Below, piece after piece: positions 16,997 to 19,792 of a DNA stretch of 64,000 nucleotides; within the stretch, counting starts at the first letter, position 1; every line of letters starts with the position of its first letter. The DNA comes from Acidimicrobiales bacterium. GTDB taxonomy: Bacteria; Actinomycetota; Acidimicrobiia; Acidimicrobiales; RAAP-2. Location: positions 1-64,000 of the forward strand of contig JADMIJ010000008.1 in NCBI GenBank assembly GCA_015478655.1, in the 5' to 3' direction. Both the position numbers and the translations under genes were made by a program. The notes beneath the pieces were generated by a model that was not told the origin of the DNA, did no database searches, and saw nothing but the letters and a program-made list of their open reading frames with translations.

Positions 16997-17024
16997 TTGA
17001 CACAAGGCCGACTGGTGTTATTGT
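16997..17024 (+). promoter_or_regulatory. sigma-70-type promoter of SRPBCC-arsR operon
   Basis: A consensus -35 TTGACA (16997-17002) is followed after 16 bases by TATTGT (17019-17024). It is unusually close to consensus for this GC-rich window and lies 47 bases before the first gene. The -10 element is overlapped by the palindromic operator, so repressor binding would block RNA polymerase. Confidence 0.7.
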
Positions 17025-17044
17025 ACAAGTAGAGACTTGTACAA
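17021..17044. promoter_or_regulatory. perfect palindromic operator, likely ArsR-family repressor site
   Basis: TTGTACAAGT (17021-17030), spacer AGAG, then ACTTGTACAA (17035-17044): a perfect 10-bp inverted repeat. Each arm also contains the self-complementary octamer TTGTACAA, so two copies are spaced 16 bases centre to centre. It overlaps the -10 element and probable transcription start. The ArsR-like gene 560 bases downstream in the same operon is the obvious binder (inference). Confidence 0.75.
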
Positions 17045-17070
17045 GCTAATGCATGAGAAAGGAACTAGCT

Positions 17071-17562
17071 GTGAATACCACGACCATCACTCCCACAACC
17101 ACCACCGACTTCCGCTCCACAAAGAGCTTCGTCGCCGCCCCCGACGCCGTGTTCTCGGCGCTGACTGACATCGACGCCCTGACCGGCTGGTGGACCCCCG
17201 CAGCCGGCGGAGCTCACGCCGGCGAGACGCTGCGCTTCCTGATGGGCGACCAGGAGGTCGTGATGCGGGTCGACGAGGCCGACCGCCCGTCTCGGGTCCG
17301 CTGGATCGTGCTCGTCTGCGAGCCCGCCTCCGATTGGGTCGGGACCTCGATCACCTTCGAACTCGAGCCGGTCGGCTCCGGCACCGAGCTGCGCTTCCAC
17401 CACCACGGCCTCCATCCTGACCTGGAGTGCTTCGAGAACTGCCAGGCAGGGTGGACCCACTTCCTTGCCAGCCTCGTCGACTACGTCGACCGGGGTGCCG
17501 GCAGCCCGAACCCGCCGGCGGAGCGCTTCGCCGCCTGGCGCGCCGAGCACGCCGCCCACTGA
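17071..17562 (+). CDS. SRPBCC/AHSA1-domain protein
   Basis: A 163-residue START-like (Bet v1/AHSA1) protein, a fold with a hydrophobic cavity for a small ligand. Typical features are the opening strand STKSFVAAPDAVFSALTD, the WWTPAAGG turn, and the C-terminal helix GWTHFLASLVDYVDRG. An ATG exists at 17053, but the ribosome site GAAAGGA lies between it and the GTG at 17071, so the GTG is the better start. It is the first gene of an operon with an ArsR regulator and a second SRPBCC protein. This gene set is common in actinobacteria, but its ligand is unknown. Confidence 0.85.
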   Translation: MNTTTITPTTTTDFRSTKSFVAAPDAVFSALTDIDALTGWWTPAAGGAHAGETLRFLMGDQEVVMRVDEADRPSRVRWIVLVCEPASDWVGTSITFELEPVGSGTELRFHHHGLHPDLECFENCQAGWTHFLASLVDYVDRGAGSPNPPAERFAAWRAEHAAH

Positions 17563-17605: not shown

Positions 17606-17983
17606 ATGATGCCCGAGCCCGAGGACACGGCAGCGCCCGTTGGACCCGACGCGGTCCTGCGGGCGCTCGCCGATCCTCATCGGCGCCAGATCCTGCGGCT
17701 GGTCCAGCACGCCGAGCTTCCCGCCGGGCAGATCGCCGCCCGCTTCGACCTCACCCAGCAGGCCGTCAGCCAGCACCTCACCGTCCTCAAGCGGGCCGGG
17801 TTGCTGGCCGAGCGCCGGGAGGGCACCCGCCGGCTCTACTCGTTGCGGTCCGAGTCGCTCCAGCCGCTACGCACCCTGCTCGACGAGTTCTGGCCGGACG
17901 CTCTCGCCAGCTTGAAGGAGTCTGTCGAGCGAGCCCACCCCCGCAATCAGGAACCCCGCAATCAGAGGAGAAGTCCGACGTGA
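17606..17983 (+). CDS. ArsR-family transcriptional regulator
   Basis: A 125-residue winged-helix protein. The domain runs from about residue 14 to 95: LRALADPHRRQILRLVQHAE, the recognition helix LTQQAVSQHLTVLKRAGLL and the wing EGTRRLYSL. There is no metal-binding CxC or ELCVCDL motif, so it probably senses something other than a metal, as in the SRPBCC-linked ArsR subgroup. It ends in a GTGA overlap with the next gene. It likely represses its own operon through the palindrome at the promoter. Confidence 0.92.
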   Translation: MMPEPEDTAAPVGPDAVLRALADPHRRQILRLVQHAELPAGQIAARFDLTQQAVSQHLTVLKRAGLLAERREGTRRLYSLRSESLQPLRTLLDEFWPDALASLKESVERAHPRNQEPRNQRRSPT

Positions 17984-18369
17984 TTAGCACCAGCGTCCGC
18001 ATCGCCGCACCGCCCGAGGTGGTGTTCCCCTACTTCACCGACCCCCAGCTGTTGGTCACCTGGATGGGGGACCGCGCCGACCTCGACGCCCGGCCGGGTG
18101 GGACGTTCGCCGTCGACTTCAGCGGGACCGCCGCCCGCGGCAGCTACGTCGCAGTGGAGGCGCCCCACCGGGTGGTCTTCACCTGGGGGATCCCCGAGGA
18201 CGCCACGCTGCCGCCCGGTAGCAGCACGGTGGAGGTGGTGTTCGTCGCCGACGGCGCCGACACGATCGTGAACCTCACCCACCGCGACCTCCCGCCGGAC
18301 CGGGAGCCCTCCCACCGGGAGGGGTGGGAGGGCTGCCTGGCCGCACTCGTCGCCGCCCCTCGCCAATAA
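17980..18369 (+). CDS. SRPBCC/AHSA1-domain protein
   Basis: A 129-residue START-like protein, with opening ISTSVRIAAPPEVVFPYFTD, middle GGTFAVDFSGTAARGSYVAVE, strand RVVFTWGIPED and C-terminal helix EGWEGCLAALVAA. The start is GTG 17980, inside GTGA with the ArsR gene and 7 bases after a GAGGAGAAG ribosome site. It is the last gene of the operon and is related to, but clearly different from, the first SRPBCC protein. Confidence 0.87.
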   Translation: MISTSVRIAAPPEVVFPYFTDPQLLVTWMGDRADLDARPGGTFAVDFSGTAARGSYVAVEAPHRVVFTWGIPEDATLPPGSSTVEVVFVADGADTIVNLTHRDLPPDREPSHREGWEGCLAALVAAPRQ

Positions 18370-18612: not shown

Positions 18613-19176
18613 CTACCAGCCGTGGCAGCCGTACTGATCCGGTGGGCTGAACTGGATCCGCTCAGCCACCATGATCTGCTGGTCCTCCGTGGCCATGGCC
18701 CCTTCGGGGGCGAACTCCCGTCCTCCATAGGCAGCCCAGTTGGATCGGCTGATGCCGAGGCCGCCGCTGAAGCGGGAGCCGTTGGCTGTCCAGTTGCCAC
18801 TCTCTTCGCACATGGCCACCCGTTCCCACGCTGCCCGCTGTGCGGGCGTCACGGTGTCCACGGGCCCGGGTGCCGGTGCGGCCACCGGAGACGGAGACGT
18901 CGTCGGCGCCGGGATAGGGACGGGGGTCTTGGGTGGAGCGAGCACCGCGGCGCTCAGGTCGGCCAACAAGCTCGATCGGCCGAGCAAGGGTGCTCCCGCT
19001 GGGTCGTGGTAGGCCGCCAGCTGGTGGGGCGGCATGGCGATGACTGCTGATGACGTCGTCGGAGACGACGAGGTTGCTGCTGCCGGCGCCGGCTGCGTCG
19101 TGGAAGCCTGCGTCAGGAAACTGACGGTGATGAGGGCGACCGGGATGATCGCCACGAGTGCAATGCGGGTCCGCAT
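18613..19176 (-). CDS. secreted Rpf-like transglycosylase-domain protein
   Basis: A 187-residue exported protein. The signal peptide (MRTRIALVAIIPVALITVSF) is followed by a Thr/Pro/Ala-rich linker. The C-terminal 75 residues or so form a resuscitation-promoting-factor/transglycosylase-like domain: WERVAMCEESGNW with the presumed catalytic Glu after Cys, FSGGLGISRSNWAAYGG, and a final Cys (YGCHGW) that would pair with the first. Rpf proteins cleave peptidoglycan and promote growth from dormancy. The start at ATG 19176 has a clear GGGAGGTG ribosome site. It is a single gene. Confidence 0.9.
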   Translation of the reverse strand: MRTRIALVAIIPVALITVSFLTQASTTQPAPAAATSSSPTTSSAVIAMPPHQLAAYHDPAGAPLLGRSSLLADLSAAVLAPPKTPVPIPAPTTSPSPVAAPAPGPVDTVTPAQRAAWERVAMCEESGNWTANGSRFSGGLGISRSNWAAYGGREFAPEGAMATEDQQIMVAERIQFSPPDQYGCHGW

Positions 19177-19792
19177 GGCACCTCCCTTCGTAGGGCGCGA
19201 GTGCGCCTTGCTCTGTTCGGTGTTGGCGGGCTCCGGCCATTGCATTCATTCCCCGGACGGCGAGCGGAAAGGCATCGTCCGTCCTGGCTGCACGCCGCAG
19301 GGTGTGCGGCCGGTTTGGTTACGCCCAGGATTGCGTCGTGGGAACACCACTCGTTTCGTCGTTGATCGGGATCATGTTTCGGTGTGCCGGTGGCCCATCG
19401 CCACGATGGCGCGCCGAGCCAAGAGGAGTACTCGGTTCATGCCGTCTTGCTGTCGATAGTCGGTGGATTCCGACTGGCAACAAGCGCCTCGATCAATTCC
19501 GAAGCAGTGCCCAGCATGGATGCGCTCATAACAGTATAGATGGCTGCTCCCCATCAGTGGGTCCAGGTCAGCCCTGCCCGCCCTGTAGAGCTGGAAGAAC
19601 TGACAGATGAATTGGCCCTCTAACTAGGAACATTGGTCATGATTGACAGTAGATCAGCCGATTCTATATTTTTGGATTCAGCCCAAGACACTTGCACTAT
19701 GAAGCGGGCGTAACGGATAGGAGATAGTCCCTATCTGTCTTCACGATGGCACCCCGTCATAGGAGGTCGTGCCCGGAATCGGACTGGAATTG
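19177..19792. other. gene-poor, relatively AT-rich stretch
   Basis: No convincing gene is found. From about 19440 on the composition is clearly more AT-rich than the rest of the window (for example ttctatatttttggattc near 19660), with stop codons in all frames. A small inverted repeat GATAGG/CCTATC lies near 19718-19738. It could be promoter DNA of the Rpf-like gene followed by decayed or acquired sequence. Confidence 0.5.

What the first reader, a model, noticed from the sequence alone, without database searches (positions are those of the whole stretch)
17021..17044. Double TTGTACAA operator over the -10 of an ArsR/SRPBCC operon
A perfect 10-4-10 palindrome, each arm containing the self-complementary TTGTACAA, overlaps the -10 of an almost consensus promoter. 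The operon encodes a non-metal ArsR protein between two START-fold proteins, which suggests a sensor-and-ligand-carrier system whose ligand is unknown.
Basis: partly seen in the sequence, partly recalled or inferred. Interest (0 to 1): 0.52.

Follow-up and report, generated by a model that had tools for sequence, protein, structure and literature searches.

The report
ArsR repressor operator with altered recognition
A small bacterial operon carries the paired DNA docking site of its own repressor, and comparison with about eighty related repressors suggests that two neighbouring amino acids choose two letters of the DNA they bind.

Summary
The palindrome is real: TTGTACAAGTAGAGACTTGTACAA, 17021-17044, over the -10 of a TTGACA-16-TATTGT promoter. 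It is the only such pair in the genome. Two same-genus genomes keep it while flanking DNA has diverged. An exact scan of a species-level genome collection gave five places; four lie at SRPBCC/ArsR loci. So it is very probably the operator of the window's own ArsR.

The first parse needs changing. Comparative data point to ACAAG-N6-CTTGT as the unit (one ArsR dimer), usually repeated after 16 bp. The window has one perfect unit (17025-17040) and a weaker one (17041-17056). TTGTACAA is the junction of neighbouring units. The geometry equals the footprinted operator of M. tuberculosis Rv2034 (TAAG-N6-CTTA), an ArsR autorepressor in an operon with an SRPBCC gene.

Across 80 related ArsR loci, 68 have a unit at spacing 6. 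Two bases track two adjacent recognition-helix residues: R/Q/H with G/A/T at -1, and Gln versus Pro/Ser/Thr/Ala with C/T at +1. The window protein is Gln-Gln. Binding is untested, independent changes are few, and the ligand is unknown. The operon is a variant of a known kind; the code is the interesting part.

The parts
16997..17002 (+). -35 hexamer TTGACA
   Evidence: conserved in G010 and G001
17019..17024 (+). -10 hexamer TATTGT (TG before it)
   Evidence: TATTGT in G010, TAGTCT in G001 at the same place
17025..17040 (+). operator unit 1: ACAAG-tagaga-CTTGT, proposed site of one ArsR dimer
   Evidence: conserved in G010 and G001
17041..17056 (+). operator unit 2: ACAAG-ctaatg-CATGA (7 of 8 core bases), 16 bp downstream of unit 1
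   Evidence: 8/8 in G010, 7/8 in G001
17021..17044 (.). the palindrome as reported: TTGTACAAG-N6-CTTGTACAA
17057..17064 (+). probable ribosome binding site GAAAGGAA
   Evidence: read; block conserved in three genomes
17071..17562 (+). S1, first SRPBCC (AHSA1) protein, 163 aa from GTG 17071
   Evidence: Pfam AHSA1 1.9e-13; fold model pLDDT 85.4
17606..17983 (+). ArsR-family regulator, 125 aa, recognition helix TQ51Q52AVSQHL
   Evidence: HTH_20 2.1e-14, HTH_5 6e-11
17980..18369 (+). S2, second SRPBCC (AHSA1) protein, 129 aa, GTG start overlapping the ArsR stop
   Evidence: Pfam AHSA1 2.4e-24; fold model pLDDT 94.7

Best explanation
17025-17056 is a double operator for the ArsR protein encoded by the operon's second gene. 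One dimer sits on ACAAG-tagaga-CTTGT and a second on the weaker ACAAG-ctaatg-CATGA 16 bp downstream. Together they cover the region from the edge of the -10 over the likely start site into the 5' leader, and so block transcription of S1-ArsR-S2 (autorepression). Repression is probably relieved by a non-metal signal, which may be the molecule that S1 and/or S2 bind. Glutamines 51 and 52 at the start of the recognition helix give this repressor an A-C first dinucleotide in each half-site instead of the G-T read by its R(P/S/T) relatives. Shown by sequence: the units, their conservation, their association with this ArsR type, and the residue/base correlation. Inferred: binding, dimer placement, repression, which residue touches which base, the inducer, and any role of the SRPBCC proteins.
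For: Conservation: promoter and operator kept in G010 and G001 while surrounding DNA diverged. Specificity: 5 exact places in genome contigs, 4 at SRPBCC/ArsR loci; TACAAG-N6-CTTGTA occurs at 10 places in 9 of 12 genomes with this operon type, all 10 at the operon, reversed control 0. Unit: 11 of 13 QQ rows have two or more CAAG-N6-CTTG units allowing one mismatch. Geometry: 68 of 80 core loci have a YWAG-N6-CTWR unit, against 0-8 of 80 at each other spacing 0-20. Residue/base link, summed: X1=R with G (125 of 134 half-sites), X1=Q with A (51 of 56), X1=H with T (6 of 6); X2=Q with C (34 of 38), X2=P/S/T/A with T (153 of 158). Without the base filter, the commonest perfect 5-6-5 repeats are ACAAG for QQ (9 of 11 loci), GTAAG for RP (17 of 27), TTAAG for HA (3 of 3). 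Independent footprint: Rv2034 binds CCGTAAGTCTAAACTTACGG, represses itself, is dimeric and not metal-responsive (PMC3338718, abstract, passages and sections 7-8). NolR Gln56, which aligns with Gln51 by the +5 offset, contacts A or T of (A/T)TTAG (PMC8960804 passages).
Against: No binding or expression data for any QQ protein. One QQ core locus (L111) and one further QQ row (L115) lack a unit; both also lack S1. Unit 2 of the window is imperfect. The X2=Q/C link rests on about one origin, and only 1 independent pair for X1 lies on well-supported branches. Label permutation gave 0 of 10,000 for the cross pairs too, so it does not by itself assign residues to bases. RS proteins also use GCAAG in some left half-sites. 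The Rv2034 helix residues were not read here.
Confidence: 0.85

Rival explanations
1. One reading: each self-complementary TTGTACAA (or CTTGTACAAG) binds one dimer, two dimers 16 bp apart.
For: CTTG-N2-CAAG is also common in QQ loci (6 of 9) and CTTA-N2-TAAG in R loci (7 of 40), a set that a faulty filter had cut down.
Against: That spacing follows automatically from tandem N6 units. Where outer arms decay (G001 GTCTACAAG; Ca. Amunia second unit) the N6 core is intact. Rv2034 footprints on TAAG-N6-CTTA. Half-sites whose centres are 6 bp apart are hard to reach for a winged-helix dimer (general knowledge, not tested).
Confidence: 0.08
2. The residue/base correlation is shared ancestry, not contact: operators and helices were inherited together and other residues set specificity.
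For: QQ proteins group together and X2=Q has about one origin; few starred branches. Permutation also links the cross pairs.
Against: Positional mutual information for X1 peaks at -1 (0.80/0.85, next 0.25) and for X2=Q at +1 (0.40/0.57, next 0.26). QP/QS (A,T), RQ (G,C) and HA (T,T) break the linkage. X1=Q lies in two distant parts of the tree, with A both times.
Confidence: 0.35
3. The palindrome belongs to another regulator and the ArsR gene is a bystander.
For: No binding data; a 2-mismatch site in G036 lies upstream of a different HTH gene, and the Paenibacillus hit has no such ArsR gene in the DNA fetched.
Against: All 10 TACAAG-N6-CTTGTA sites in 12 genomes are at the operon; the operator type follows the ArsR helix type across 68 loci; Rv2034 is autorepressive.
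Confidence: 0.05
4. A chance palindrome or an RNA hairpin in the leader.
For: The repeat could fold if transcribed; this was not computed.
Against: Absent from shuffles, kept while flanks diverged, placed over the -10 so only partly transcribed.
Confidence: 0.02

Closest known systems
Mycobacterium tuberculosis Rv2034-Rv2035-Rv2036 operon (ArsR autorepressor with a Polyketide_cyc2/SRPBCC protein; PMC3338718)
   Same: ArsR plus SRPBCC in one operon; non-metal; operator with identical 4-6-4 geometry (TAAG-N6-CTTA) near the start of the operon
   Different: Half-site GTAAG instead of ACAAG; no S1 in the passages read; the footprint shows one palindrome, while the window has tandem units
NolR (rhizobial ArsR-family regulator with DNA-bound structures; PDB 4omy, 4omz, 4on0)
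   Same: Winged-helix ArsR fold; Gln56 at the helix start, aligned with Gln51 here by offset, reads A/T (PMC8960804 passages)
   Different: Consensus (A/T)TTAG-N9-A(T/A) with a weak second half-site; no SRPBCC partner known to me
SrnR (PDB 7p6f, best sequence match among solved chains, 5.5e-17)
   Same: ArsR-family fold, recognition-helix region aligned
   Different: Helix reads SAPSISRHL in the alignment, a different dipeptide; its gene context was not examined
CalU16 / CalC / DynU16 and AHSA1-like RHE_CH02687 (SRPBCC proteins)
   Same: S2 profile: 2lak 2e-35, CalU16 5.9e-13, CalC 9.1e-5; folds match
   Different: The Cal proteins lie in an enediyne gene cluster (recalled); DynU16 in the dynemicin locus (entry title); no such cluster was looked for here

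Membership tests
ArsR/SmtB-type regulators (fold family) | winged-helix ArsR domain | tested here: met
   HTH_5 42.5 bits (cut-off 22), HTH_20 53.6 (27), NCBIfam HTH_metalloreg 86.1 (55)
ArsR/SmtB metallosensors | metal-site cysteines (alpha3/alpha3N types) | tested here: not met
   no cysteine in the 125-aa translation; alpha5-type D/H/E sites were only judged by eye
SdpR subfamily (NCBIfam NF033789) | curated score cut-off 100 bits | tested here: not met
   74.9 bits
Rv2034-type ArsR-SRPBCC operons | ArsR gene directly followed by an SRPBCC gene | tested here: met
   ArsR stop overlaps S2 start
Rv2034-type ArsR-SRPBCC operons | inverted repeat with 4-6-4 geometry at the operon promoter | tested here: met
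   against the footprint
Rv2034-type ArsR-SRPBCC operons | GTAAG half-site | tested here: not met
   ACAAG in the window and in nearly all QQ loci
Rv2034-type ArsR-SRPBCC operons | autorepression | not testable with these tools
   needs binding and reporter assays
SRPBCC/AHSA1 proteins (S1, S2) | AHSA1 domain and helix-grip fold | tested here: met
   Pfam above cut-off; folds
CalC-type self-resistance proteins | binding or destruction of a toxic natural product | not testable with these tools
   no ligand data

The most novel reading that the evidence does not exclude
Actinobacterial ArsR autorepressors of this group use a modular two-letter recognition code. The first residue of the helix dipeptide picks base -1 (Arg-G, Gln-A, His-T), the second picks base +1 (Gln-C; Pro/Ser/Thr/Ala-T), on a fixed N-Y-W-A-G-N6 frame often repeated after 16-17 bp. 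This keeps the many ArsR paralogues of one genome from cross-regulating. In the window's own genome the Gln-Gln repressor (ACAAG) coexists with an Arg-Pro one (GTAAG, L150) and an Arg-Ser one (GTTAG, L159).
Probability: 0.55. Interest if true: 0.65.

Novelty: new variant of a known kind. Interest (0 to 1): 0.52.

Why it matters
If the code holds, the operator of a large group of ArsR repressors, usually labelled 'metalloregulator', can be read from two residues. It also gives a ready set of insulated repressor/operator pairs and a clean case of specificity change on a constant scaffold. The Gln-Gln branch marks a distinct operon type with a second SRPBCC protein (S1) whose ligand may be the inducer.

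Tried and rejected
Searching print for the 8-mer TTGTACAA gave 2,009 papers, those listed unrelated. Searches combining ArsR with SRPBCC or AHSA1 gave 1, 1 and 0 papers; only listings and abstract starts were seen, none describing this operator. Terms on recognition-helix specificity gave a general list or nothing. Plasmid search for S1 gave 6 distant records; for ArsR 585 records, all below 60% identity; none was pursued. An S1 search in 395 genomes of the class gave 8 genomes including its own. A pattern-first search for GTAAG-N6-CTTACGG in 296 Actinomycetota genomes gave 33 places in 27 genomes; of the 30 loci fetched, 6 have an ArsR gene next to the site, all with helix RPA(V/I)SQHL; most other places are probably chance. 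In one search a faulty redundancy filter dropped rows (a very short protein matched everything); counts were redone. In one search, of 130 rows found, 2 with too little upstream DNA (L072, L096) and 26 redundant ones were dropped, and 22 of the remaining 102 fell outside the core helix pattern. I considered that the ATG at 17053 starts S1 and rejected it.

Full report
Observation. TTGTACAA occurs twice in the window and never twice in 100 shuffles; the pair occurs once in the 4.47 Mb genome. It overlaps the only promoter-like match of the region, TTGACA-16-TATTGT. Downstream lie S1 (AHSA1), ArsR and S2 (AHSA1). The ArsR protein has no cysteine (translation).

Conservation. The nearest ortholog (G010, an Acidimicrobiales MAG, contig record L038) has ArsR 88%, S1 85% and S2 84% identical. 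Its upstream DNA has diverged, yet TTGAC, TATTGTACAAG and CTTGTACAAG are kept. A third genome of the genus (G001) has the same promoter, operator and gene start at the end of a contig. In G001 the left outer arm is decayed (GTCTACAAG) while CAAG-N6-CTTG is intact. In the three genomes the shared block AGAAAGGAA is followed by GTG (window, 17071) or ATG, which places the start of S1 there.

Specificity of the site. An exact scan for TTGTACAAG-N6-CTTGTACAA in genome contigs gave five places. Four are at SRPBCC/ArsR loci: Ca. Amunia, a Solirubrobacterales MAG, the Acidimicrobiales MAG and Actinomadura nitritigenes. The fifth, in Paenibacillus, has no related gene in the fetched 8 kb. Allowing two mismatches in 100 relatives gave 4 genomes: own, G010, G001, and G036, where the site lies upstream of a different HTH gene. 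In 12 genomes bearing this operon type, TACAAG-N6-CTTGTA occurs at 10 places in 9 genomes, all at the operon itself, with no match of the reversed control. The regulator therefore looks local, although weaker sites would be missed.

What the unit is. In 13 rows with Gln-Gln ArsR, 11 have at least two CAAG-N6-CTTG units allowing one mismatch. In 8 of these 11 the two are 16 bp apart; L041 has 34, L101 has 38, and L110 has 24 then 16. L111 and L115 have none. In the window the second unit is ACAAG-ctaatg-CATGA, 17041-17056. TTGTACAA is thus the junction of two neighbouring units (CTTG-TA-CAAG). Footprinting in print supports the N6 reading: M. tuberculosis Rv2034 protects CCGTAAGTCTAAACTTACGG, which is TAAG-N6-CTTA. 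It forms dimers, represses itself, is not released by the metals tested, and lies in an operon with an SRPBCC-type gene (PMC3338718: abstract, passages and sections 7 and 8).

Relatives and the code. Most relatives of the window ArsR in the fetched loci have Arg-(Pro/Ser/Thr) at the start of the recognition helix, where the window has Gln51-Gln52. In the first corrected spacing spectrum, Gln-Gln loci had CAAG-N6-CTTG in 8 of 11 and no TWAG-N6-CTWA. Arg-type loci had TWAG-N6-CTWA in 24 of 45 and CAAG-N6-CTTG in 1 of 45; block shuffles gave means of 0.06 to 0.42 loci. In the final set of 80 non-redundant core ArsR loci, 68 have a unit at spacing 6 against 0-8 at every other spacing from 0 to 20. 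Half-site counts, as base -1 / base +1: RP 73 G of 78 / 78 T of 78; RS 42 G of 46 / 41 T of 46; RT 6 G of 6 / 6 T of 6; RQ 4 G of 4 / 3 C of 4; QQ 30 A of 34 / 31 C of 34; QP 17 A of 18 / 18 T of 18; QS 4 A of 4 / 4 T of 4; HA 6 T of 6 / 6 T of 6. The search pattern left -1 free and restricted +1 to C or T. Without any base filter, the commonest 5-6-5 perfect repeats agree for QQ, RP, RS, HA and QP; the smaller classes have one or two loci each. Mutual information with the first residue peaks at -1 (0.80 and 0.85 in the two half-sites, next highest 0.25). With Gln at the second residue it peaks at +1 (0.40 and 0.57, next 0.26). NolR Gln56, at the position of Gln51 by alignment offset, contacts A or T (PMC8960804 passages).

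Limits. Simple permutation on 59 loci gave 0 of 10,000 for the expected pairs and also for the cross pairs, so the assignment of residue to base rests on the mixed classes and the positional analysis. On a weakly resolved tree of 68 rows (6 starred of 65 inner branches), X1 changes 5 times and base -1 7 times. The Gln-Gln and Gln-Pro/Ser groups are in different parts, and His appears in two places. Independent pairs are 5 on all branches but 1 on starred ones. The second-residue link has about one origin. The code is therefore a strong hypothesis, not a proof.

Architecture. Of 68 loci with a unit, 29 have two or more; of 30 successive distances 17 are 16 bp and 10 are 17 bp. In many Arg-type loci the spacer of the upstream unit is the -35 hexamer itself (TAAG-TTGACA-CTTA, listing). 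In the window the units lie instead from the -10 into the leader.

The SRPBCC proteins. S1 is found in 10 of 11 core Gln-Gln loci and in 0 of the other 69 core loci; its queries came from Gln-Gln loci, and the loci are only a few kilobases long. S1 is either first in the operon or divergent from ArsR. S1 resembles the Colwellia Aha1-domain dimer 2m89 (1.2e-25; Foldseek 5.1e-11). S2 resembles AHSA1-like RHE_CH02687 and CalU16. These are ligand-binding folds; no ligand can be named.

Conclusion. The feature is the tandem operator of an Rv2034-like ArsR autorepressor with a changed half-site. The operon belongs to a known kind. The new parts are the parse of the site, the Gln-Gln/S1 branch, and a proposed two-residue recognition code. 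I found no paper stating that code in the ten library searches made, which cover open-licence papers only.

Noticed in passing
L150 and L159 (window's own genome, G000:C315 and C311): Two other ArsR genes of the same genome have Arg-Pro and Arg-Ser helices and carry GTAAG and GTTAG units upstream, so three operator types coexist in one genome.
   Followed up: partly
L089, about 1383 and 650 nt upstream of ArsR: The operator array is present twice, apparently as inverted copies some 730 bp apart.
   Followed up: no
L035:7869-7892: A perfect TTGTACAAG-N6-CTTGTACAA in Paenibacillus periandrae with no related ArsR or SRPBCC gene in the 8 kb held.
   Followed up: partly
Arg-type loci such as L009, L073, L074: The -35 hexamer TTGACA is itself the 6-bp spacer of an operator unit.
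   Followed up: partly
window 17071-17562 and S1 relatives (alignment A2): Seven of ten aligned S1 proteins share a C-x3-C motif (CFENC in the window); the three divergent ones L090, L101 and L110 lack it.
   Followed up: no
L091-L108 (family of Actinomadura): Arg-Thr-type ArsR loci have no S1 or S2 match (7 of 7), so the regulator class is not tied to SRPBCC.
   Followed up: no
L034:1501-1524: A two-mismatch version of the operator lies just upstream of an unrelated HTH gene in G036.
   Followed up: no
window 18613-19245 (-): Transglycosylase-like (PF06737) protein downstream of the operon on the other strand.
   Followed up: no
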